From: Bacteroidia bacterium
GTDB lineage: Bacteria; Bacteroidota; Bacteroidia; UBA4408
Direction: 5' to 3'
Length of the DNA: 54,677 bases
NCBI GenBank assembly: GCA_020845635.1
Contig: JADLFI010000030.1
Coordinates: 1-54,677 of the forward strand
The translations under genes were made by a program, and so were the position numbers. Shown here in pieces: positions 43,222 through 54,677 of this stretch. Every line of letters begins with the position of its first letter. Positions within the stretch are counted from its first letter, which is position 1. The notes under the pieces were generated by a model. The model saw only the letters and a program-made list of their open reading frames with translations. It did no database searches and was not told where the DNA came from.

Positions 43222-44352
43222 GTGAAAATCATTATTGTTGGACCGGCTTTCCCTTTGCGTGGCGGCATTGCCGATTTTAATGAATCATTGTGCCGTGAAT
43301 TGAACAAACAAGGACATCAAGCCCGGATATTTTCATTCTCCTATCAGTATCCTAACTTTTTATTTCCGGGAACTACACAATACAGCAAAGGTAAAGGCCC
43401 TGAGGACATTTCTATAAATACGGTAATAAACTCCATTAATCCCTTTAACTGGTTTAAAACGGCTCATCAAATAAAAAAATTACAACCTCACTTAGTTATT
43501 GTCAGATACTGGATTCCTTTTATGTCGCCATGCTTAGGAACTATTATGCGTAGAATAAAAAAGCAATCAAAAATTAAAATTATTGCCATTACAGACAATG
43601 TAGTTCCTCACGAAAAACGAATTGGAGACAATATTCTTACACGCTATTTTGTAAATTCATGCCAAGCTTTTGTTACCATGTCAAAATCGGTAATGACCGA
43701 TTTAAATTTATTTACCGCTAATACCAACAAAGTCTTTATTCCACACCCAATTTACGATACTTTTGGAAATAAAGTAAGCAAACAAGAAGCCCGCAAATTT
43801 TTAAAACTGGAAACCCATAAACCATACATTCTATTTTTTGGTTTTATCAGACAATATAAAGGCCTTGATTTAGCGCTGAAAGCTATGGCCAATAAACAAA
43901 TTAAACAAATGGGAATTAAGTTAATTGTGGCCGGTGAGTTTTACGAAAATCCGGAACCCTATTTGCAATTAATTCAGCAACACCAACTGGAGCAAAACAT
44001 CATTCTTAACACACATTTTATCAATAGCGATTTGGTTAAATATTATTTCTGTGCTGCCGATTTAATTGTACAACCTTACCATACTGCCACACAAAGCGGA
44101 GTTACACAAATAGCTTACCATTTTGAACGCCCTATGTTGGTTACCAATGTAGGAGGATTGGCCGAAATGGTACCCCATCAGCTATGCGGTTATGTTGCCG
44201 AACAAAACGAAAATGAAATAGCAAACTATATTGTTGATTTTTATATGTCGGGGCGCGAAGAGGAAATGACAAGAAACTGCATTGAGGAAAAAAAGAAGTT
44301 TACTTGGTCGGCTATGGTTAAAGGGATAATTGACTTGTACCAGAAATTATAA
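43222..44352 (+). CDS. GT4-type glycosyltransferase
   Basis: A 376-residue GT-B-fold glycosyltransferase. The N-terminal domain starts IIIVGPAFPLRGGIADFN. The C-terminal domain has LFFGFIRQYKGLDLALKA, LIVAGEFYENPEPYLQLI, the nucleotide-sugar stretch ADLIVQPYHTATQSGVTQIA and NVGGLAEMV. It transfers sugar from an activated donor to a surface glycan or lipid acceptor. Neither is predictable, and no polysaccharide cluster is adjacent. The start is GTG at 43222, 18 nt after the exonuclease stop, so the two are likely coupled. Confidence 0.87.
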   Translation: MKIIIVGPAFPLRGGIADFNESLCRELNKQGHQARIFSFSYQYPNFLFPGTTQYSKGKGPEDISINTVINSINPFNWFKTAHQIKKLQPHLVIVRYWIPFMSPCLGTIMRRIKKQSKIKIIAITDNVVPHEKRIGDNILTRYFVNSCQAFVTMSKSVMTDLNLFTANTNKVFIPHPIYDTFGNKVSKQEARKFLKLETHKPYILFFGFIRQYKGLDLALKAMANKQIKQMGIKLIVAGEFYENPEPYLQLIQQHQLEQNIILNTHFINSDLVKYYFCAADLIVQPYHTATQSGVTQIAYHFERPMLVTNVGGLAEMVPHQLCGYVAEQNENEIANYIVDFYMSGREEEMTRNCIEEKKKFTWSAMVKGIIDLYQKL

Positions 44353-44376
44353 TCCTCTCGTAAGCTGTATGCCTAA

Positions 44377-44410
44377 TTGTTTTCTTTTTCAGATTTGTTT
44401 TGTATTTTTG
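44377..44410 (+). promoter_or_regulatory. Candidate sigma-A promoter for the NifU-type gene
   Basis: TTG at 44377-44379, 23 nt, then TATTTTTG at 44403-44410, a full -7 match. ATG 44431 follows 20 nt later. An in-frame TTG at 44422 would give a leader of only a few nucleotides. Confidence 0.55.
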
Positions 44411-44430
44411 TATAATAAAAATTGAAAACA

Positions 44431-44685
44431 ATGATTGACAAAGAGTTGTATCAAAAGATAGAAGACGCATTGAAACAAATAAGACCTTATTTGGAGGCTG
44501 ATGGAGGCGATGTTACTTTAGTAGAAGTTACCGAAGATTATGTGGCAAAAGTTAAACTGCATGGGAGTTGCAGTACTTGCAGCATGAGCATGATGACCAT
44601 GAAAGCCGGAGTAGAAGAAACGGTAAAAAGAGCCGTAAAAGAAATTAAATCGGTAGAGGCAATTGATTTGTCTGTTAATGCTTAA
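44431..44685 (+). CDS. NifU C-terminal-domain Fe-S scaffold protein
   Basis: An 84-residue NfuA/NifU-C-type protein. The core stretches IRPYLEADGGDVTLVEV and CSTCSMS, with the cluster-binding CxxC pair C47/C50, match the family. It carries a 4Fe-4S cluster for delivery to client enzymes. I chose ATG 44431 over the TTG three codons earlier because of the promoter position. It is followed by the biotinyl carrier gene after 11 nt and then thiL, in the same direction. Confidence 0.9.
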   Translation: MIDKELYQKIEDALKQIRPYLEADGGDVTLVEVTEDYVAKVKLHGSCSTCSMSMMTMKAGVEETVKRAVKEIKSVEAIDLSVNA

Positions 44686-44696
44686 AAATTTGATAC

Positions 44697-45203
44697 ATGA
44701 TAAAAGCCATACTCAATAATCGTGAGCATGAAATAGTGTTTAACAATAAAGAAAGAAAAGAAGGTACTATAAATAGCCAAAGTTTTATTTTAGACTTGCT
44801 AAAGTTAGATTCCGGAAAGTGGCATATTTTAAAAGACAATCAATCTTTTAATATTGAAATTGTTAAGCTCGATAAAGAGACCAAGCAAGTAGATATTAAA
44901 ATAAACAACAAACCTGTTTCCATAAAGCTAAGCGACCGTTTTGATGCCTTATTAAAAAATTTGGGAATAGATAATTTAGCTTCTACAAAAGTGGCCGAAC
45001 TTAAAGCTCCTATGCCGGGTTTAGTATTAGATGTTATGATTAATGAAGGTGATACTGTTGCTAAGGGTGATGCCTTGATAATATTGGAAGCCATGAAGAT
45101 GGAAAACATTATTAAATCACCTACCGATGGGATAATAAAAAAAATAAATGTACAAAAATCTTTAGCTGTTGAAAAAAATCAGGTTTTGATTTCATTCCAA
45201 TAA
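44697..45203 (+). CDS. Biotinyl-carrier (BCCP-like) subunit
   Basis: A 168-residue protein. Residues 1-85 form a variable N-terminal region. Residues about 98-168 are a biotinyl/lipoyl barrel with the biotinylation site EAMKMEN (K134), preceded by LKAPMPGLVLDVMINEGDTV. It carries carboxybiotin between carboxylase subunits (acetyl- or propionyl-CoA carboxylase or oxaloacetate decarboxylase type). The partner carboxylase genes are not in the window, so the enzyme is uncertain. It lies 11 nt after the NifU-type gene. Confidence 0.87.
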   Translation: MIKAILNNREHEIVFNNKERKEGTINSQSFILDLLKLDSGKWHILKDNQSFNIEIVKLDKETKQVDIKINNKPVSIKLSDRFDALLKNLGIDNLASTKVAELKAPMPGLVLDVMINEGDTVAKGDALIILEAMKMENIIKSPTDGIIKKINVQKSLAVEKNQVLISFQ

Positions 45204-45246
45204 GCTTGGCATAAAAAATAAATTTAATTATTGGTCTTTTAAAAAC

Positions 45247-46335
45247 ATGTTAGATAACAGCAACATTCCGCCACGTACCGAGTTGGAAAGATTAGGAGAA
45301 TTTGGTTTAATAGATTATCTTACAAAAAATATAAAACTCAAACACCAATCCAGCATTAAAGGGGTAGGAGATGATGCAGCGGTATTAGGCTTTGATGAAG
45401 GGCTCAGATGCATTGTTACTACCGATATGCTGATTGAAGGGGTTCATTTTGATTTATCTTACACTCCACTAAAGCACTTAGGATACAAGTCGGTAATGGT
45501 TAATGTGTCTGATTTGGCAGCAATGAATGCACAAGCCCGACAAATTACCGTATCTGTTGCAATTAGCAATCGCTTTTCATTAGAGGCTTTAGACGAACTT
45601 TATCAGGGTATATATTTGGCCTGCGAAAGAGAAGGAATAGATGTGGTTGGAGGCGATACAACCTCTTCAACTTCGGGATTAATTATTAGTATAACAGCTA
45701 TAGGACAAGCCAAAGAAGAGGATATTGTATATCGTAATACCGCGCAAGAAAATGATTTAATTGTAGTTAGTGGCGATTTAGGTGGAGCCTACGTTGGACT
45801 ACAACTGCTGGAACGCGAAAAACAAGTCTTTTTAAGCACTAACCAGCGTGTACAACCCGATTTGGAGGGAAATGATTACATCCTTGAAAGGCAATTAAAA
45901 CCCGAGGCTAGAACTGATATTACTGCTATTTTAAAAAAATTACAGGTTAAACCTACGGCCATGATTGATATTTCTGACGGGCTTTCATCAGAAATAATGC
46001 ATATCTGCAAACAATCCGATAAAGGTTGCAATATTTTTGAAGATAAAATTCCTATTGACCCAACAACTTACAATGCAGCGCGCGAGTTTAACCTTGACCC
46101 TACTGTTTGTGCTTTAAATGGTGGTGAAGATTATGAACTCTTATTTACCATGAATCTTTCAGATTTTGATAAAATAAAAGGAAACCCTAATTTAACGGTT
46201 ATTGGTCATATTACCGAGAAAGCTCAAGGTTATCAGCTTATTACAAAGTCCGGAAGTCAACATCCGCTCACAGCACAGGGTTGGAATGCCTTTTCTGAGG
46301 GAGAAGAAAAACACGCCCAAGACAATCAGGAATAA
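45247..46335 (+). CDS. thiL: Thiamine-monophosphate kinase
   Basis: A 362-residue AIR-synthase-like kinase. It starts with RTELERLGEFGLIDYL. The metal/ATP motif is VGDDAAVLG, followed by TTDMLIEGVHFDL, VMVNVSDLAAMNA and VVGGDTTSS, and the C-terminal part has DISDGLSSEIMHI and LNGGEDYELLFTM. It phosphorylates thiamine monophosphate to the active diphosphate. It lies downstream of the carrier gene, and the accessory cassette on the opposite strand starts 194 bases beyond its stop. Confidence 0.95.
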   Translation: MLDNSNIPPRTELERLGEFGLIDYLTKNIKLKHQSSIKGVGDDAAVLGFDEGLRCIVTTDMLIEGVHFDLSYTPLKHLGYKSVMVNVSDLAAMNAQARQITVSVAISNRFSLEALDELYQGIYLACEREGIDVVGGDTTSSTSGLIISITAIGQAKEEDIVYRNTAQENDLIVVSGDLGGAYVGLQLLEREKQVFLSTNQRVQPDLEGNDYILERQLKPEARTDITAILKKLQVKPTAMIDISDGLSSEIMHICKQSDKGCNIFEDKIPIDPTTYNAAREFNLDPTVCALNGGEDYELLFTMNLSDFDKIKGNPNLTVIGHITEKAQGYQLITKSGSQHPLTAQGWNAFSEGEEKHAQDNQE

Positions 46336-46529
46336 TTATATTTTCCTCATTATTGAAGTGGAGTATATTTTACGTATAGGAAATTTACCCACAACACCCG
46401 CAGCACAGAGTGTCTCCTCTATTGCCTTTTATGCTACTTTAGATTAGCACCTATTGTGTTTGTAATAACCGCATTAAAGTTAATAAAAAGTCTACTTCTA
46501 AACTGTCCTATTTTTTGGGAGGGGTACGG
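46336..46529. other. Boundary spacer with an IS-end-like sequence
   Basis: A spacer between thiL and the convergent helicase gene. Near its right end the minus strand reads CCCCTCCCAAAAAATAGGAC followed by AGTTTAGAAG. This resembles the terminal sequences of IS3-group elements (CCC, A-run, GGACA). No transposase is attached. It directly abuts the helicase stop codon and may mark the edge of the inserted cassette. Confidence 0.3.
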
Positions 46530-48692
46530 TTATGGGCTTGATTTCTCTTTGTATATTGATTTCGTTTGTTCGTTATGAATAAGTTCAAATTTGCTTAGTA
46601 GTTTTTTTGTCTGCTCAATGTCAAAGTATTTGTTCTTTACAAGTCTAATTTGATAGTTTTTTGGTAAATAGATTCCCCATTTAGAAAAATCTAAAAGTGT
46701 GGGATTGGTTTCTAGAAGCGTTGAAATATGTGTGTCAATGTCAGTCAATGGAAACGATAAATAACTCCATTTAGAAATCAATTCTTGTTTTGGAACATCA
46801 ATGTCAAACGAACTATTGCTGTCGTCAAGTGTATTTTTAATTCCAGCGATATTCAAAAGCAATTGTAACGTCCTGTTAATTCGTGTTCCAGTAAATGTAA
46901 ATAGTTGCAAATGTTTTTCTGTTGTCAATAACGGTCTTTCAGATTGCAAATTATTTATGTTGAACACAGCGAAATCTTTTCGCATCATTTCTATTTCATC
47001 AAAACTTGGTTCGTCAAGAAAATCATATTCAGTTTTGGAATACAATACCTCAAACATTTTTTCTCTAATCTTTTGATGAACTACTGCACCACCACCAAAA
47101 AACATAGGTTTTTTCCCGTCTTTTGCTGGAATTACTTCTATTTTTTTCGCTTTATGGTCAATGAATTTTATTTTCCAGATTTTTGCAGATAGCAATATGT
47201 TTTCATCTTCAATAATTTGAGGCGAAAAAGGTATTTCTCCAATTGTATTGCCTGCATTTACAACTTTAAAATTTTCTTCGGTTTTGAATACGCTGTAAAA
47301 TTCTCGACTATTAACAACTTTCTCGCCTTCAACACCAATAATAACCTCGTGTTGCAGTTTTTCAAGAAAATCAACTTCAATCAAATGTTGAAGTATTTCT
47401 TCAATTTCTGTTTGCTCTATTGAAGTGAAAGCCGAGTTTTCCTTGAGTTGTTTAATTAGTTCTATTAACAGAATCCCCGAATGACCTTTAGTTATTGATA
47501 AAGCCTGATGGACTAATATGTCATAAGGCTTTTCATTTTTTTCGGGTGGCTCGATGAAGCTTTCTTTGTATAAAAGCCAGCAAGAAATAGATTGTAGTAA
47601 ACTCCATTGAGTTGTTGCATAAAGAAATAAATTACTACTCTCTCCATCTTTTCTACCACTTCTTCCAACTCTTTGGATTAATGAAGCAATACTGTGTGTT
47701 GTATCTATCTGAACAACTTCATCAACAGAACCTATATCTATTCCAAGCTCCAATGTAGATGTACAGGAAATACAAAAATTATGTCGCTTGTTATTTTTTG
47801 CAAAGTACTCAACATATTCTCTTACTTCCCTGTCAACTGACGAGTGATGTGAAAAGTAATTTGGGTGTCCTTTTACTCTGTCTGATATTTTTTTAAGTTT
47901 TACCGCTACTTCCTCTGCTCGTCCTCTGCTGTTTGGGAAGATTAAAACTTTATTGTCTTTGGTTTCAATATATAAGTCTTTCAAAAGTTCTAATGGCAAC
48001 TCTTCCTTTTCATTTTTGAAAAAGCGAAAAGTTGTATTGATTTCTTTTGCAGTTCTATCCAATAACACTTTGGTATTTGCCTCATTTCCAGTAAATTTTT
48101 TTGCTTCATTGTAATCACCAATTGTTGCTGAAAGTCCTACAATACTGAATGAATTGGAATTAACCCTTTGAAGTCTGCTTAAGATAGATTTTAATTGAGT
48201 TCCTCTATCTGTTCCAATGAATGAATGTATTTCGTCAATAACAACATACTTTAAATTTGAAAACAACTGTTTAACATTAAATGGTTTGTTTACAAACATT
48301 GCCTCCAATGATTCGGGCGTAATTAATACAATTCCTGTTGGTTGTTTAATTAGCCTATTTTTCAATGTTTTATTTGCTTCTCCGTGCCACTTGGTTACTG
48401 TTACATCAAGATTTTTGCAAAGTTCTTCGACACGATAAAATTGGTCATTTATTAAGGCGATTAATGGTGAAATATATAAAACTTGAACACCTGATTCATT
48501 AAAGTTTACTTTTGAAAGTATTGGCAAAAAAGCGGCTTCGGTCTTTCCTGATGCGGTTCTCGAAGCTAAAATGAAATTTTCATCAGAGCCTAAAATTTTG
48601 GAAATAGCAACATTTTGAATTGGTCGCAATTGCTCCCAACCCTTATCACGAATATATCTTCTTATCGGTTCAGATAGTAACTTAAATGACAT
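46530..48692 (-). CDS. Lhr-like superfamily 2 DNA/RNA helicase of the Ter-like cassette
   Basis: A 720-residue SF2 helicase. The Q-like LRPIQ is at 22-26, Walker A ASRTASGKT at 43-51, DEIH at 153-156, SAT at 188-190, and motif VI QRVGRSGR at 340-347. The region after about 380 is a winged-helix/Lhr-core-like domain and ends without the long Lhr C terminus. An ATP-driven 3'-5' nucleic-acid translocase is expected. Its ATG overlaps the stop of the ATPase gene by one base (TAATG). It is the last gene of the cassette. Related Lhr-like helicases occur beside BrxC/D-like ATPases in defence loci. Confidence 0.85.
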   Translation of the reverse strand: MSFKLLSEPIRRYIRDKGWEQLRPIQNVAISKILGSDENFILASRTASGKTEAAFLPILSKVNFNESGVQVLYISPLIALINDQFYRVEELCKNLDVTVTKWHGEANKTLKNRLIKQPTGIVLITPESLEAMFVNKPFNVKQLFSNLKYVVIDEIHSFIGTDRGTQLKSILSRLQRVNSNSFSIVGLSATIGDYNEAKKFTGNEANTKVLLDRTAKEINTTFRFFKNEKEELPLELLKDLYIETKDNKVLIFPNSRGRAEEVAVKLKKISDRVKGHPNYFSHHSSVDREVREYVEYFAKNNKRHNFCISCTSTLELGIDIGSVDEVVQIDTTHSIASLIQRVGRSGRKDGESSNLFLYATTQWSLLQSISCWLLYKESFIEPPEKNEKPYDILVHQALSITKGHSGILLIELIKQLKENSAFTSIEQTEIEEILQHLIEVDFLEKLQHEVIIGVEGEKVVNSREFYSVFKTEENFKVVNAGNTIGEIPFSPQIIEDENILLSAKIWKIKFIDHKAKKIEVIPAKDGKKPMFFGGGAVVHQKIREKMFEVLYSKTEYDFLDEPSFDEIEMMRKDFAVFNINNLQSERPLLTTEKHLQLFTFTGTRINRTLQLLLNIAGIKNTLDDSNSSFDIDVPKQELISKWSYLSFPLTDIDTHISTLLETNPTLLDFSKWGIYLPKNYQIRLVKNKYFDIEQTKKLLSKFELIHNEQTKSIYKEKSSP

Positions 48693-50005
48693 TATAGTTC
48701 TTCTATGTTATCTAATGACAATTCATCAGGTCTTTCATCTTCAATTTCAATCTCTCCAAATAGTTTATTTTTATCAATATTCGGATTCTGTCTAATAATA
48801 TTTAAGATATTTAGAAAGTCTCTGATTACCTCTCTTGGTGTGAGAAATTCAGATGCTCCAGGTTTGTTAAATAACTCCTCCATAAATTGTTGAATTTCAT
48901 CATCAGTTATTTGAATTGTAGTTTTGTAATTGTAGTCGAAAATTGCTTTTAATTTCTTAAGTAAAACAAATATTTCGTTATGGTCAAGAGGTAATAATTT
49001 AAGGACAGGTTGGGCAAAATCTCTGATTTCAGATGTTTCAAATTTATTCGTTGCAAGTCTTGTTTTTAAAGCATCATAACTAAAAAGACCTCTTCGTTGA
49101 TTTTCTAAAAATTCTTTTGTCCCTGCGAAATTGAAGAATATGTTAGAAACCTTTCCTTGAAAACAATCATTGTAAATGGTTAGAATTTTTTCATAGTTTT
49201 TTTCTCTCATTACCGAAGTCGAAATCTTGTAAAGATTAATAGCCTCGTCAAGATTTATCATAAAACCACTATAACCCATACTTACAAAGAGTTTACAGAA
49301 GTTTTTAAGCATATCATAATAATTCAAGTCGTTAATTACTTCTCTAACACCTAAATCCTGTCTTGCTTCGGTTTTTGTTCTGTATTCTCCTTTGAGCCAC
49401 TTTAACGCATTTCTTCTGAGTTGTTCGTCTCCTGTAATATAACCTTCGTAGTATTTCATTACAACTGTCCCAAAGTCAAAACCACCAACATCTGTAATTT
49501 CGTTTATGGTTTTCATTATGTTATTCTGAATGAGTTTCAAATATTGCTCATTTCTTATTTCAACCAATGAGATGTTGTTTTCCTCTGCTGTCTTTGTAAT
49601 TACTTGTTCAATCCATTTTTCCAATAAAGTAGGTAAGGCACCGCCTTCAGGTTTTGTTTGAATTGAAACATTATCCATTATTGCAGAATAAAGAGCTACG
49701 CCTTTGCCATCATTTGAATACAAACGATTATCAGGAGTGAAGTCTGCATTAGCTACAACAAACTTCTGCTTCAAAGCAACTGTATTGAGCATGTGAAGCA
49801 TAAATGATTTTCCTGAACCAAAGTCTCCAATCCAGAACTTTACCATACTATGCCCGTTTTTTACATCCTCTAATGCGGATACGACTGCATTGATTTCCTC
49901 CGAACGACCAACAGTAATATGTTGGACACCAATCTTTGGAACTACACCACCAATTAAGGAATTGATTATTGAAGTGGCTTCTTTTGGTTTTATGTTATCT
50001 ATCAT
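48692..50005 (-). CDS. BrxC/BrxD-like (DUF2791-type) P-loop ATPase of the Ter-like cassette
   Basis: A 437-residue soluble ATPase. Walker A GDFGSGKS is at 60-67 and Walker B GFMINLDEA at 247-255. FFNFAGTKEFLENQRRGLFS and LTPREVIRDFLNIL are characteristic of the DUF2791/BREX ATP-binding family. N-terminal residues 3-40 (AxxIINSLIGGVVPKIGVQH and VGRSEEI) match the same family. Its start overlaps the TerB-C gene by four bases (ATGA) and its stop overlaps the helicase start, so all three are translated as a unit. In BREX, such ATPases work with a methyltransferase and a phosphatase; neither is present here. Confidence 0.85.
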   Translation of the reverse strand: MIDNIKPKEATSIINSLIGGVVPKIGVQHITVGRSEEINAVVSALEDVKNGHSMVKFWIGDFGSGKSFMLHMLNTVALKQKFVVANADFTPDNRLYSNDGKGVALYSAIMDNVSIQTKPEGGALPTLLEKWIEQVITKTAEENNISLVEIRNEQYLKLIQNNIMKTINEITDVGGFDFGTVVMKYYEGYITGDEQLRRNALKWLKGEYRTKTEARQDLGVREVINDLNYYDMLKNFCKLFVSMGYSGFMINLDEAINLYKISTSVMREKNYEKILTIYNDCFQGKVSNIFFNFAGTKEFLENQRRGLFSYDALKTRLATNKFETSEIRDFAQPVLKLLPLDHNEIFVLLKKLKAIFDYNYKTTIQITDDEIQQFMEELFNKPGASEFLTPREVIRDFLNILNIIRQNPNIDKNKLFGEIEIEDERPDELSLDNIEEL

Positions 50006-51606
50006 TTCGCTGAAATTTTTTGAAAATACTCTGGAATTATTGTGTAGTAATCGTCTTCTTCTTCAATTAAAACATCATCTAAAGCCTCATAGCAGGCTTC
50101 ATTAATGCTTTCGATTACTTGATTTTTAAAGACACCTTTTGATTTTACAAATTCTTCAATTTCACTTTGAAGAATTGAAAAATTATTTTTTAAAAACAGT
50201 TCTAAAATAGAAATATGTATCGGATTTAGGGATAATTCACTTAAAAATGCCGAGTGATGAGATTCTTCATTTTTCTGAATTATTTCAATTTTTATTTCTT
50301 CACTATTGACTTCTTGAGATTGAATTAAATTATTTTCATCTTCAAAATCATCACGTAGATATTCGTTAAGTAGTTCAACAGTACCAGTGTGTTGTTGTTG
50401 AACTACTTTGATAGCTGTCCTATCAAGTTGTATTTTTTTACGCTTAACTTCGTAAATCTTCGGTATAGCATTAAGTGCCTTATCTAGATTTTTATCTTTT
50501 ATTAATTCACTTATAATTTGCTCAAAATCGTGAAGCTGCTCGTTAGTTTTGAATAAGCTTTTTTGAATGGTCTTAGTCAGTTTTTTATTATCAAAGGTGG
50601 CAGATTTTAAATCGTGATAAAGATATTTAATATAATATTCTATACCTAGATTTTTATTATATCTCGATATAAATTTAGAAGCTTCAAAATAAATATTTTC
50701 TATATATGGATTTTCTGCATTTCTCTTTACTAAATCCACAATTTTATCATTAAATAATATTACTTCATTGTCTTTAAATTCATTTTTTATTTTTTCTAAT
50801 ATTATTTTGTATCTTGCCCTGTTATAGTTATTAATTCTAATTTCACTTTCTAAGTCAATATCACTAATTCTACTTAAATCTTCTCTAACATATTGAATGA
50901 GGATTGGTGCTATTTTACTATCAAATTGTGCAAGAGATTCCTGGGAATGAAAATACCAGTTTAAATCTGTTTTCCGTCCTACATTAAAAAACTCTCTAAG
51001 TTCATTCTCACAAGTTTTATATATGCATTGATTGTATCTAGTATTTAATTCGACTAATGCATTGTTATAATTGAAACTCCCTTGTCTGTATTTATAATGC
51101 TTTCTTGCTTCAATATCGATTATTTCATTTTTTATTTTTTTGTGTTCATCTACACCTAAATATTCATCCAAGTAATCTAAGCAATTTAAAAGTTGCCGTA
51201 TTAAATTTATTGCACAAAACCGTATTGAATTAAACTTATTATCTGTATCAATTAAACCATTTAGTATCTCAATTTCACTTTGAGTTAACTTTAATTCTTC
51301 TTTATATTTATTACCAATTTTCCAACTTTCAAACTCTACTATGTTGTTTGCAGTATGAATTTTTTCATAATTTCCTGTAACATCAATTATTGAATCATCA
51401 TAATTACTTTTTGTCGAGCTTGATGTAGTTACAGTTATTTTTATGTTTTTGAGAATATTTTGGATTAATTCATCTTTCATTTCTTGTTCAGTTTTCTGTC
51501 TAACATTGGAATTTGTAATCTTGGTTCTTTGTTGAACGGGTTGCTTCTTTTTTGTCGCAGTATAAATTATAAAAATTATTATTCCAATGATGATTATTGC
51601 AGTCAT
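50002..51606 (-). CDS. Membrane-anchored TerB-C-domain protein of the Ter-like cassette
   Basis: A 534-residue protein. A single N-terminal membrane helix (about 3-17, almost all Ile) is followed by a basic linker, then a long helical region (about 90-330). The C-terminal part (about 330-534) resembles the TerB-C domain. It has the stretch YYIKYLYHDLKSATFDNKKL, a later NPIHISILELFL helix, and a winged-helix-like end with SINEACYEALDDVLIEEEDD. A canonical TerB core is not obvious. TerB-C proteins are thought to act as metal- or stress-responsive scaffolds. It is the first gene of the operon and could tether the ATPase and helicase to the membrane (inference). Confidence 0.7.
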   Translation of the reverse strand: MTAIIIIGIIIFIIYTATKKKQPVQQRTKITNSNVRQKTEQEMKDELIQNILKNIKITVTTSSSTKSNYDDSIIDVTGNYEKIHTANNIVEFESWKIGNKYKEELKLTQSEIEILNGLIDTDNKFNSIRFCAINLIRQLLNCLDYLDEYLGVDEHKKIKNEIIDIEARKHYKYRQGSFNYNNALVELNTRYNQCIYKTCENELREFFNVGRKTDLNWYFHSQESLAQFDSKIAPILIQYVREDLSRISDIDLESEIRINNYNRARYKIILEKIKNEFKDNEVILFNDKIVDLVKRNAENPYIENIYFEASKFISRYNKNLGIEYYIKYLYHDLKSATFDNKKLTKTIQKSLFKTNEQLHDFEQIISELIKDKNLDKALNAIPKIYEVKRKKIQLDRTAIKVVQQQHTGTVELLNEYLRDDFEDENNLIQSQEVNSEEIKIEIIQKNEESHHSAFLSELSLNPIHISILELFLKNNFSILQSEIEEFVKSKGVFKNQVIESINEACYEALDDVLIEEEDDYYTIIPEYFQKISAK

Positions 51607-51626
51607 TCTTCTCTAAATCTTAGTTT

Positions 51627-51634
51627 CAAAAATA
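51627..51634 (-). promoter_or_regulatory. Candidate -7 box (TATTTTTG) of the Ter-like cassette
   Basis: The minus strand reads TATTTTTG, a full TAnnTTTG match 20 nt before the TerB-C ATG. No -33 TTTG at the expected place, so the promoter may be weak or regulated. Confidence 0.4.
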
Positions 51635-51657
51635 TATAAAATTTTAGTAATGCTGTT

Positions 51658-51742
51658 GCGTTGGGACAAAAGCAAAATGTGCTGCATTGTGTTGGCTTTG
51701 AGCGTTGGGATGCAACTCTTTTGATTTTGCCGAAGCGTTGGG
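51658..51742. repeat. Three copies of GCGTTGGG in the cassette flank
   Basis: The octamer GCGTTGGG occurs at 51658-51665, 51702-51709 and 51735-51742, always in the same orientation, with 44- and 33-base spacing. Between them lie AAAGC/TGTGCTGCA-like words. The layout resembles the repetitive spacer elements found next to mobile cassettes in Bacteroidota, and the GTTGGG part vaguely recalls integron cassette sites. No integrase is present. Confidence 0.5.
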
Positions 51743-51908
51743 TTGTTTTGTCATTTGTCTGTCTGTTTAATTTTTCACATTCGTTCAATAGGGTAACCAC
51801 CAACCTCAGCCCGTATAAAAACTCACTTTCATTAACACAAGCTATTTGATATTTATGAAATAAAAATACAAATAAAAACTGAAATACAAAATATCTTTGT
51901 GAATGCTA

Positions 51909-52040
51909 ATGATGACTCATAAAAGTCTTACTCATATTGGGTTTAAGAGCTTCGAGAATTATATTTAAAAAGATAATACTGCAAAATTTATTGATGCTTT
52001 TGCTGAAAAACTCGAACTTGATAAATTATTCTCCTTGTAG
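51909..52040 (+). pseudogene. Remnant of an IS1182-like transposase N terminus
   Basis: An ATG-started frame with one internal TAA (51966-51968). After the stop it reads KDNTAKFIDAFAEKLELDKL, which looks like the conserved N-terminal stretch of IS1182-type (DUF772) transposases ('DNPVRFIDAFVEKLDL'), preceded by HIGFKSFENYI. The frame ends at TAG 52038-52040, so only about 43 residues remain. It is clearly non-functional. The family call is by eye. Confidence 0.4.
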
Positions 52041-52252
52041 GCGCTAAGCAGATGTTAAGCTCTTGTGTGCATGCATTAGTACCGGTATTTATACTCAAAT
52101 ATTACAGATGTAAGCACTTGGCTCAACCATAAAATGGAAGGGAGTCAGCTTAGATACCACCAGGAGACTAAACAGCATTAAATTGATAGAGTTAGCCCCA
52201 ATTTTGTTGGTTTGGGTTTAACAACGACTTAAAAAAAACGATAACTTTTTTC

Positions 52253-53713
52253 CTAAAAGCGCTTGCCCAAGGTTAATACAACCATTCCGGAGCTAATTGA
52301 GTTTTGTGATGGGTTAGGGTTAAAAGCACTATTATATAAATAATACTTCTCATTGTAAAAACTGCGCATATAGGCAATGTCAGCAAAAAAACCGTCTTGT
52401 CTATAGCCAACACCTCCGGTAATTAATTGCTGATTGCTCATTAACCCCGCATTTTTAAACGCACTTGGGTAAATACCATATCCAAACCTTAAGCTAAATG
52501 GCGTTAATCGTACTTCTGCGCCCATACGAATATTCCCTACAGATTTAAACTTATCACGTATGGCGTTATTCTGATCAGAAAAATTATACCCCTGAGCTCT
52601 AAATCTTGAGTTTCTGTAATCTACATACTCATAATCGGCACTAATTAAACCGTATTCACCAATAACAAAAGCAAGAGAACCTATAGCTCTAAAAGGACTA
52701 ATATATCTATAATTAAAACTTCCCTTATCTCCTCCGCCTGCAGCATCTATCCCTGCGCTATATGTCTTACCATCAGAAAATGATGTTGACATCCCCGCAC
52801 TATAACTATCGGTTAGGCTATAAAAAGTTGGTGAATGAATAGCTCCTCCAATACGTATAGCAGGAATTGGCATATAAACAAATCCGGCTTTAAAATTTAT
52901 TCCATTACCATCGGTATTTAAATAGTTGTCTATATAAAAACTCTTTATATCAAAAGTATCTGTGGCTGGTCTTTCGCTATATCTGCTTTCTTCCCAATAT
53001 CTTATTTTTTCAAAACCTATGGTACCTCCTATAAAAAGTTTATTGTCGTAATTTCCGCCTACAGTCAAAACCGTTTCACCAATGCCTCCTCTCCTTTCAA
53101 TGGTTTTTCTTTGTATCTTATCTATATTAGAGGGCATAGCACTATAATATTTATTACTAAGTGTATCAATCAAATAGGTACTCCATGCTAAATCGGGGCC
53201 AAATAATGGTAGATTCTCAGGATTATAAGATTGAGCCTCGTGTAAGTAAACATCTGTTAAACTAGAACTTTGATTATTCCCCTCCATAACAACACGGTTG
53301 TTGAAATTAGCCAATCTATTATACCCAAAGCCCATAGCTACCCCTTTCCATTTACTGTTAGCCGATTCTATGGGATTAGCAAAAATAATTCCTGTATTTG
53401 AAATATTAAATTGATAATGATCGTCTGAATTGCTTTGCCCTAAGTAACTTGATTTTGTTGATGCTGCTTTTAAAGCAGGGCTAAAAGTAAACTCTGAGGC
53501 TCTGTATAAGCCTATTCCTCCGGGGTTAGTAGTTAAGCTGGAAAAATCGGCTCCCAATGCCCCAAAAGCTCCTGCCATGGAAATACTTCTGGCAGTACCT
53601 CCTATTGAAGTATTAGAAAAACGTAAAGCATCATCTTCATTTTGAGCAACCACTACTTGTGAACTCATAAACAAGGCCAAAACTGTTTTTGTTATTTTAT
53701 TTACCGTTTTCAT
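52253..53713 (-). CDS. FadL/OmpP1-family outer-membrane protein
   Basis: A 486-residue outer-membrane barrel. The signal peptide is 1-23 (cleavage after VVAQ). The N-terminal SIGGTARSISMAGAFGALGADFSSLTTNPGG (in two parts) is the FadL/TodX plug-like region: SMAG, then LTTNPGGIGLYR. Many amphipathic strands follow to the C-terminal VVLTLGKRF. It probably takes up hydrophobic compounds. It lies downstream of the Asn/Ser/Gly-rich gene on the same strand (30 nt), so the two may be co-transcribed. Confidence 0.85.
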   Translation of the reverse strand: MKTVNKITKTVLALFMSSQVVVAQNEDDALRFSNTSIGGTARSISMAGAFGALGADFSSLTTNPGGIGLYRASEFTFSPALKAASTKSSYLGQSNSDDHYQFNISNTGIIFANPIESANSKWKGVAMGFGYNRLANFNNRVVMEGNNQSSSLTDVYLHEAQSYNPENLPLFGPDLAWSTYLIDTLSNKYYSAMPSNIDKIQRKTIERRGGIGETVLTVGGNYDNKLFIGGTIGFEKIRYWEESRYSERPATDTFDIKSFYIDNYLNTDGNGINFKAGFVYMPIPAIRIGGAIHSPTFYSLTDSYSAGMSTSFSDGKTYSAGIDAAGGGDKGSFNYRYISPFRAIGSLAFVIGEYGLISADYEYVDYRNSRFRAQGYNFSDQNNAIRDKFKSVGNIRMGAEVRLTPFSLRFGYGIYPSAFKNAGLMSNQQLITGGVGYRQDGFFADIAYMRSFYNEKYYLYNSAFNPNPSQNSISSGMVVLTLGKRF

Positions 53714-53743
53714 TATAACCAGTTAAATAGATTAATGCCTGTT

Positions 53744-54677
53744 TTACTTTCTTCCTCCCGTTGATCTGCTGCCTCCCCCAATATTACCTCTACCTGAGCC
53801 GGTGCTGCCTCCGCTTTGTGAACCAATAGAAGAGCGGCTATTGTTGGACGGACTTGAAAAATTTGACCTTGACGGTGATTCATTTCTTTGAATACTTGGT
53901 GTACTATTATTTATTGATGGTGCACTCTGATATGTTCTTTGCGAAGAATTATTGTTATTGTTGTGGTTCATGTTTGTCGGTTTCTCATTTCTGTTATTAT
54001 TGTAGCTTGGTCGGCTCTCAACCGGTTTACTATAATAATCATTTGAATTATTCTTTATATTTCTGTCAACCGGACGTGTGTCATAATTTGGTGTACTTAC
54101 CCCCATATTGTTGTTGGGTTTGGTATCATTACTATTTACAGGTTTAGTGTCATAATTTGGCTTAACTACTCCAGTATTTCTAGGCTTTGTATCATAGCTT
54201 GGAGTACTTGTTCCAAAGTTGTTGTTATTTGGTTTGGTATCATAGCTTGGGGTACTTGTTCCAAAATTATTGATATTTGGTTTGGTATCATAGCTTGGGG
54301 TACTTGTTCCAAAGTTATTATTGTTTGGTTTGGTATCATAGCTTGGGGTACTTGTTCCAAAGTTATTATTGTTTGGTTTGGTATCATAGCTTGGGGTACT
54401 TGTTCCAAGACTGTTGTTGTTTGGTTTGGTATCATAGCTTGGGGTACTTGTTCCAAAACTGTTGTTGTTTGGTTTGGTATCATAGCTTGGGGTACTTGTT
54501 CCAAAACTGTTGTTGTTTGGTTTGGTATTAACGGTTTTATCTACCGGTTTGATTTCTGTATTTGTTACTGTTCTATTATCAAAGGTAGGCTTTACACCAC
54601 CGGTTGAATTATTCCCAAGAGTATTGGTTTTTACATTAGTAATTTGGTTTATTGTAGCTCTATCAACACCTTTGGAA
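53744..54677 (-). CDS. Asn/Ser/Gly-rich protein with seven 16-residue repeats, 5' end beyond the window
   Basis: The frame is open from the window edge (first full codon at 54676) to a stop at 53744, at least 310 residues. Residues begin SKGVDRATINQITNVKTN, then a stretch ending EIKPVDKTVNT. Seven 16-residue repeats of the type YDTKPNNNSFGTSTPS follow, then a disordered Asn/Ser/Arg/Gly-rich end. Composition predicts an unstructured, extended, probably exported protein; the N terminus is not visible. The internal ATG at 54106 is not the start because the frame continues upstream. The family is not recognised. Confidence 0.75.
   Translation of the reverse strand, partial: SKGVDRATINQITNVKTNTLGNNSTGGVKPTFDNRTVTNTEIKPVDKTVNTKPNNNSFGTSTPSYDTKPNNNSFGTSTPSYDTKPNNNSLGTSTPSYDTKPNNNNFGTSTPSYDTKPNNNNFGTSTPSYDTKPNINNFGTSTPSYDTKPNNNNFGTSTPSYDTKPRNTGVVKPNYDTKPVNSNDTKPNNNMGVSTPNYDTRPVDRNIKNNSNDYYSKPVESRPSYNNNRNEKPTNMNHNNNNNSSQRTYQSAPSINNSTPSIQRNESPSRSNFSSPSNNSRSSIGSQSGGSTGSGRGNIGGGSRSTGGRK
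54191..54526 (-). repeat. Seven tandem 48-bp repeats inside a coding region
   Basis: Units start at 54191, 54239, 54287, 54335, 54383, 54431 and 54479, exactly 48 bases apart, with few differences between copies. In the reading frame each gives YDTKPNNNSFGTSTPS. The near identity points to recent copy-number change by slippage or recombination. The unit at 54527 is already diverged. Confidence 0.92.

What the first reader, a model, noticed from the sequence alone, without database searches (positions are those of the whole stretch)
46530..51606. Three-gene TerB-C / BrxC-D-like ATPase / Lhr-like helicase cassette: a candidate defence system
Seen: three leftward genes overlapping by four and one bases, coding for a membrane-anchored TerB-C-like protein, a DUF2791/BREX-type ATPase and an SF2 helicase. 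They lie between core genes (thiL and a FadL-family gene) and are flanked by mobile-element debris. Known: Ter-domain proteins have been linked by comparative genomics to stress and DNA-processing gene neighbourhoods, and the ATPase family occurs in BREX loci. Inference: an independent cassette that senses membrane or nucleic-acid stress, or phage infection, and acts by helicase-driven remodelling. No nuclease, methyltransferase or phosphatase is present, so it is not a standard BREX, restriction or DISARM locus.
Basis: partly seen in the sequence, partly recalled or inferred. Interest (0 to 1): 0.85.

Follow-up and report, generated by a model that had tools for sequence, protein, structure and literature searches.

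The report
Shango anti-phage defence gene trio
The three genes are a copy of Shango, an already described bacterial defence system against viruses whose inner workings are unknown; this copy belongs to a branch in which the TerB parts of one protein are shortened or too altered to recognise.

Summary
The three leftward overlapping genes are there, open, at the stated coordinates. They are not a new system: PADLOC-DB names them SngA, SngB and SngC of Shango, in Shango order (5e-37, 5e-169, 4e-215). Shango inhibits phages in Pseudomonas aeruginosa (PMC10250203, passages). The locus looks horizontally acquired: GC below 25 other window genes, no SngB relative in 3 of 3 same-genus genomes, close relatives in other families and phyla. 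Best mechanism, inferred only: SngB (predicted ORC/Cdc6-like AAA+ ATPase) loads or activates the SF2 helicase SngC on invading DNA, with fast-changing SngA, here probably membrane-anchored, as sensor or scaffold. Modestly new: the window sits in a supported branch (39 of 90 SngB rows) whose SngA has Pfam TerB_C (38 of 38) but no match to TerB or TerB_N (0 of 38 each; 16 and 31 of 38 elsewhere). The window's SngA also lacks a block of about 125 residues that its closest relatives keep. Ordinary as a discovery; useful as a lean Shango variant.

The parts
50002..51606 (-). sngA: 534-aa SngA, N-terminal hydrophobic segment (about residues 1-17), helical middle, C-terminal TerB_C domain (384-531); lacks a block of about 125 residues kept by its nearest relatives
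   Evidence: PADLOC SngA 5.5e-37; Pfam TerB_C; alignments; hydropathy; AlphaFold model, mean pLDDT 81.4
48692..50005 (-). sngB: 437-aa SngB, BrxC/BrxD-family AAA+ ATPase with Walker A GDFGSGKS (from residue 60) and Walker B MINLDE (from residue 249); predicted ORC/Cdc6-like fold
   Evidence: PADLOC SngB 5.1e-169; PF10923; motifs; model mean pLDDT 89.8; VIA-align best Z 17.0 to a Cdc6/Orc1 chain
46530..48692 (-). sngC: 720-aa SngC, SF2 (Lhr/BrxHI-like) helicase with helicase motifs in place
   Evidence: PADLOC SngC 4.4e-215, BrxHI/BrxHII 5e-133; DEAD and Helicase_C; motifs
51789..52032 (.). multi-copy intergenic repeat upstream of sngA, holding a broken short frame; probable mobile-element remnant
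   Evidence: parts of it match 21 other places in the own genome; two stops in 44 codons
46482..46528 (.). 47-bp element directly downstream of sngC, with one other copy in the genome (G000:C4:31193-31240, 92%)

Best explanation
The locus is a horizontally acquired Shango anti-phage system (confidence 0.95 for this identity). Most likely mechanism (my confidence about 0.35; inferred, not shown): SngB, an ORC/Cdc6-like AAA+ ATPase, assembles on DNA and loads or activates SngC, a BrxHI/Lhr-like SF2 helicase, on phage DNA or its replication intermediates, so that phage DNA is unwound or its replication disrupted. SngA, the fastest-changing partner and in this copy probably tethered to the inner membrane, acts as sensor and scaffold through its TerB_C module and decides when the SngB-SngC motor is switched on. 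Shown here: homology, gene order, catalytic motifs in place, predicted SngB fold, patchy distribution, faster SngA divergence. Inferred: DNA target, loading step, sensing role, membrane attachment. The confidence given below is for identity and defence role, not for the mechanism.
For: PADLOC best hits SngA/SngB/SngC. Same gene order (TerB-like, ATPase, helicase) as PA14 Shango, which inhibited several phage families (PMC10250203, passages). In 80 genome loci found through SngB, 66 upstream proteins were tested and all 66 match the SngA profile, and 69 of 80 have an SngC-like helicase next door. SngB model: the first 15 VIA-align rows are Cdc6/Orc1, Orc2-type, Cdc6 and ORC chains (best Z 17.0, 3.9 A, 260 aligned), followed by DNA-bound TnsC and archaeal ATPases; a BrxC chain is in the Foldseek list at E 0.01. 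SngC, BrxHI, DruE and DpdJ form a potentially distinct clade in a published helicase tree (PMC12278908, passage). BrxD and BrxHI are a linked pair in type 2 BREX, and BrxD is suggested to load or activate BrxHI (PMC12839542, passages). Mean identity to the window over 15 chosen relatives: SngA 41%, SngB 84%, SngC 68%.
Against: No published mechanism of Shango was found. By phmmer the best PDB chains are chance-like (SngB E 0.077, SngA E 0.07). No nuclease was recognised, so the damaging step is unexplained. Fold similarity among AAA+ proteins does not show helicase loading, and HslU, an unfoldase, leads the Foldseek list. Neighbouring defence genes are sparse and uncontrolled. Published Shango did not act on every phage tested. 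The window copy has no phage test, and its shortened SngA could be impaired. Fast SngA divergence could also mean weak constraint.
Confidence: 0.9

Rival explanations
1. Abortive-infection reading: SngB-SngC monitor DNA for phage-made structures, and SngA, tethered at the membrane, is the effector that harms the cell membrane or metabolism when released.
For: N-terminal hydrophobic stretch in the window SngA and, by the same threshold, in 20 of 38 branch members longer than 300 aa, the window included; no nuclease recognised; the Hachiman precedent of a sensor helicase with a separate effector (PMC12278908, start of abstract, passages).
Against: Only 20 of 38 SngA proteins inside the branch and 14 of 43 outside it have such a stretch, so anchoring is optional; Pfam recognises no toxic domain in the window SngA. 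[quoted passage not shown]
Confidence: 0.25
2. Stand-alone part of BREX type 2: the trio is a BrxD-BrxHI dyad that works with BREX proteins elsewhere in the genome.
For: SngB matches BrxD (PADLOC 2.2e-44) and SngC matches BrxHI/BrxHII (5e-133); BrxD-BrxHI are a linked dyad in type 2 BREX.
Against: The Shango profiles score far better; NCBIfam BREX_BrxD 151.8 bits is below its cut-off of 350; the only BrxC/BrxD-family match in the own genome is SngB itself, so no BrxC was found. PglX and PglZ were not searched for.
Confidence: 0.03
3. Host stress-response or DNA-repair cassette (metal or DNA damage) that is not antiviral in this host.
For: TerB-family proteins were linked to stress and DNA-processing contexts (Anantharaman 2012; recalled, seen only as a reference-list entry; not held).
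Against: Homologous systems stop phages; patchy distribution, 4 of 295 class genomes including the own one at E<=1e-50, is unlike housekeeping; no TerB core is recognised by Pfam in the branch.
Confidence: 0.07
4. Decaying, non-functional Shango: the short SngA and very low GC mark a locus on its way out.
For: SngA lacks a block that its nearest relatives keep; SngA GC 0.261; adjacent mobile-element debris.
Against: All three frames are open, gene overlaps and catalytic motifs are in place; 12 other rows of the branch also have 25 or fewer residues at that block, among them 8 Chryseobacterium loci, and 11 of the 12 have an SngC-like gene next door (L084 does not).
Confidence: 0.1

Closest known systems
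Shango (SngA-SngB-SngC), tested in Pseudomonas aeruginosa PA14 and reported from E. coli
   Same: Same three families in the same order; all three match the PADLOC Shango profiles; PA14 order TerB-like, ATPase, DEAD/DEAH helicase
   Different: SngA of the window has only TerB_C by Pfam, no TerB or TerB_N match, and an N-terminal hydrophobic segment; a review lists PF05099 TerB as the Shango domain (PMC10952713, passage). The PA14 and E. coli SngA themselves were not compared here
BREX type 2 BrxD-BrxHI dyad
   Same: Homologous ATPase and helicase; the same pairing (PMC12839542, passages)
   Different: No BrxC-type protein found in the own genome; an SngA is present; below the BrxD equivalog cut-off
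Lhr-like and ligase-associated DEXH helicases
   Same: SF2 helicase core; TIGR04121 at 1.2e-73
   Different: 248.2 bits against a cut-off of 850; the BrxHI/BrxHII and SngC profiles of PADLOC score higher (442.9 and 714.6 bits)
ORC/Cdc6 and TnsC AAA+ ATPases
   Same: Predicted fold of SngB: Z 17.0 with Cdc6/Orc1, Z 13-14 with TnsC
   Different: Fold only; 8-16% identity in the ORC/Cdc6 and TnsC rows; no role in replication or transposition implied

Membership tests
Shango | SngA (TerB-type) protein | tested here: met
   PADLOC SngA 5.5e-37, residues 187-532 to profile 190-524 of 528; TerB_C 6e-29. The N-terminal third lies outside the match
Shango | SngB ATPase | tested here: met
   PADLOC SngB 5.1e-169, residues 4-425; Walker A and B present
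Shango | SngC DEAD/DEAH helicase | tested here: met
   PADLOC SngC 4.4e-215, residues 2-699; helicase motifs present
Shango | Three adjacent genes in the order A-B-C | tested here: met
   Overlapping genes A-B-C; PA14 order read in PMC10250203 (passage)
Shango | Pfam TerB (PF05099) domain in SngA, as listed in a review | tested here: not met
   Window SngA: only TerB_C. Branch: TerB in 0 of 38; other SngA: 16 of 38. As 22 of those 38 also lack it while all 38 match the SngA profile, I do not treat it as required for membership
Shango | Anti-phage activity | not testable with these tools
   Needs a phage assay
BREX type 2 | BrxC-family ATPase in the genome besides BrxD | tested here: not met
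   Only one PF10923 match in the own genome, SngB itself (genome in 60 contigs, 99.99% complete)
BREX type 2 | BrxD equivalog score | tested here: not met
   NF033438 151.8 bits, cut-off 350
BREX type 2 | PglX methyltransferase and PglZ in the genome | not tested
   No genome-wide search for these was run

The most novel reading that the evidence does not exclude
A widespread branch of Shango works without the TerB metal-binding core: its SngA has been reduced to a TerB_C platform with exchangeable N-terminal modules (single hydrophobic anchor, SH3, TM2, or none), and the window carries one of its leaner forms. Then TerB_C, not TerB, is the obligatory part, and the fast-changing SngA would be the recognition subunit over a conserved SngB-SngC motor.
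Probability: 0.35. Interest if true: 0.5.

Novelty: new member of a known kind. Interest (0 to 1): 0.28.

Why it matters
No mechanism of Shango was found in the held library with the searches made here. A branch whose SngA lacks recognisable TerB and TerB_N domains, with a compact example of about 5.1 kb, helps to narrow down which parts are obligatory (TerB_C, the ORC/Cdc6-like ATPase and the helicase) and gives a small construct for testing the helicase-loader idea. As a discovery of a defence system it is not new.

Tried and rejected
New-system reading: rejected, because PADLOC names all three proteins. BREX part: disfavoured. Always-at-one-core-locus reading: rejected; in G022 the trio lies on contig C67 while its thiL homologue is on C19. 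Flank DNA (window 44000-54677) matched none of 38 related loci outside the cassette, apart from one match in L072 that reaches 138 bases upstream of sngA (a DNA-level test that would miss diverged flanks).

Clean empty site: not found. In the same-genus genome G001 the homologues of the two flanking genes lie about 36 kb apart on one contig, so the window site is also a rearrangement point. Fold of SngA: no Foldseek match at E<=0.001; VIA-align best Z 9.5, to helical-repeat proteins, below the level that its note calls telling for helical folds. Rfam at gathering score: only two tRNAs in the window. Phage genomes: no SngB relative in 50,697 records. The block missing from the window SngA as a diverged TerB_N: suggestive only (hhalign probability 22%, E 0.001 alone; colinear with the TerB_N region when whole SngA profiles are aligned at 99.3%). 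A loose regular expression for the TerB core did not separate the groups (36 of 39 and 44 of 46) and one for helicase motif I was badly written (22 of 82; it misses the window's own TASGKTE); a stricter TerB pattern gave 10 of 38 in the branch (shuffled mean 6.2) and 18 of 38 elsewhere (shuffled mean 7.2), a weak contrast. Neighbour test: 199 flanking ORFs of at least 120 aa (over 1500 aa left out) of 22 of the 35 branch loci; at E<=1e-20, 3 PADLOC families with one member each in the first 99 (one of them an RmuC, which may be housekeeping), and 31 families in the other 100, the 25 shown with one member each (several families may share a protein); no control was run.
Full report
What is there. 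Three genes on the minus strand, 50002-51606, 48692-50005 and 46530-48692, are open and overlap by 4 and 1 bases. Pfam gives TerB_C, BrxC_BrxD, and DEAD plus Helicase_C. PADLOC-DB gives SngA (5.5e-37), SngB (5.1e-169) and SngC (4.4e-215) as best hits, ahead of BrxD (2.2e-44) and BrxHI/BrxHII (5e-133). This is Shango.

What is known. PMC10250203 (passages) describes Shango in P. aeruginosa PA14 as TerB-like protein, ATPase and DEAD/DEAH helicase, with modest (10- to 100-fold) lower plating of many but not all phages and generally strong protection in liquid culture, and says that it was also found in E. coli (Millman 2022; recalled, seen only as cited). A 2026 review lists its mechanism as unknown (PMC12926258, passages). 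SngC, BrxHI, DruE and DpdJ form a potentially distinct helicase clade (PMC12278908, passages). For BREX type 2, BrxD is called an ORC-Cdc6 AAA+ ATPase that may load or activate BrxHI (PMC12839542, passages; its main text does not hold the word Shango). Searches for a Shango mechanism or a Bacteroidota subtype turned up none among the listings; passages only were also seen of PMC10952713 and PMC11096173. Most listed papers were not opened.

Recurrence. An ORF lies directly upstream of SngB in 75 of 80. Of these, 66 were tested as SngA (34 in A4, 32 in A5) and all 66 match the SngA profile, as do the other 10 rows of the two alignments (window, G022 and eight plasmid loci). The 14 loci not tested had no upstream ORF (5) or one open at the contig end (9). 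An SngC-like helicase follows in 69 of 80; of the other 11, 8 had no ORF called there and 3 had one that did not match (not looked into further). Annotated plasmid trios: Hymenobacter, Cetobacterium (beside a type I restriction-modification operon), Natrinema (archaeon), Paenibacillus, Sphingobium, Pseudoalteromonas and Arthrobacter. SngB relatives occur in 691 of 72,556 plasmid records (the trio was not checked in each; BREX BrxD could be among the weaker ones) and in none of 50,697 phage records.

Acquisition. SngB relatives at E<=1e-50 are found in 4 of 295 genomes of the class, the own one included; at E<=0.001 in 0 of 3 same-genus and 0 of 4 same-family genomes. G205, in another family of the class, has the trio with SngB 92%, SngC 87% and SngA about 53% identical. 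In the SngB tree the window's nearest rows are MAGs titled Microscillaceae (93%), Bacteroidia, Ignavibacteriae, Flavobacterium and Chlorobaculum. GC is 0.323 (sngC), 0.323 (sngB) and 0.261 (sngA) against mean 0.369, sd 0.023, minimum 0.329 in 25 other window ORFs that I picked from the 45 of 150 aa or more.

The variant branch. I set the group by SngB identity (loci at 62% or more to the window, with two plasmid loci and G022) and then built the tree: its 39 rows, of 90, form one side of a supported branch (99/92), so the label and the tree are not independent. Of 38 SngA proteins of this branch, 38 have TerB_C, 0 have TerB and 0 have TerB_N by Pfam at E<=0.01, while 4 have SH3_3 and 3 have TM2. 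Of 38 SngA proteins from outside it, 38 have TerB_C, 31 TerB_N, 16 TerB and 4 TM2. Whole SngA profiles of the two sets align with probability 99.3%, so they are homologous. A block of about 95 aligned residues, present in 15 of the 31 branch rows of A6, may be a diverged TerB_N (weak); two further rows (L087, L094) have residues there that do not resemble it and were left out of A10. The window has none of it, 12 other rows have 25 or fewer residues there and one has 77, while the closest relatives L065 and L067 keep it. A6 leaves out seven rows of A4: L024, L057 and L058 (not of a source allowed for folding) and L072, L095, L096 and L098 (long, short or divergent). The window SngA starts with a hydrophobic segment whose first 14 residues equal those of L067.

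Structure. SngB: mean pLDDT 89.8; Foldseek leads with HslU (E 3.1e-5), with BrxC (9zdx) at E 0.01; the VIA-align second look puts Cdc6/Orc1 and ORC chains first (Z 17.0 down to about 14), then TnsC. SngA: mean pLDDT 81.4, mostly helical, no confident relative. SngC was not modelled.

Mechanism. Homology, catalytic motifs and fold make an ATPase-plus-helicase motor likely. SngB as loader rests on the published BrxD suggestion and on fold. SngA as sensor or scaffold rests on its divergence (mean identity to the window 41% for SngA, 53% for its C-terminal part, 84% for SngB, 68% for SngC over 15 chosen relatives) and on its exchangeable N-termini. None of these steps was shown. Rivals are an abortive-infection effector role of SngA, a host stress cassette, a BREX part, and a decaying locus.

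Verdict.

Noticed in passing
window 46482-46528 and G000:C4:31193-31240 (L145:2694-2741): The 47-bp element just after sngC has one other copy in the genome, about 150 bases after a 327-aa ORF (L145:1557-2540) that looks like a DUF1016/YhcG-type nuclease (family name recalled, not searched). A shared 3' sequence behind two defence-like genes may mark a common mobile vehicle.
   Followed up: partly
window 51789-52032: Multi-copy intergenic repeat: parts of it match 21 other places in the genome, several at contig ends; contains a broken short frame with two stops.
   Followed up: partly
window 54189-54528: 48-bp tandem repeat, 7.1 copies at 95%, inside a 616-aa ORF at 53744-55594 of the contig; same-genus relatives of this ORF are 42-46% identical.
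   Followed up: no
L024:10122-10535 (G022): A 137-aa TerB-like ORF (judged by eye) lies about 4 kb from the G022 Shango trio, whose own SngA has no Pfam TerB match; possibly a TerB protein in trans.
   Followed up: no
L060:11739-15964 and L062:11515-16240: In Natrinema and Sphingobium a metallophosphoesterase and an SMC-family or AAA-family ATPase lie directly next to Shango: a recurring neighbour pair in 2 of the 7 annotated plasmid loci.
   Followed up: no
L096:7989-10046 and L095:6104-7750: In two Bacteroidales-type loci the SngB ORF is much longer (about 685 and 548 aa); next to L096 the following ORF did not match SngC, and L095 ends soon after SngB: a possible divergent or fused arrangement.
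   Followed up: no
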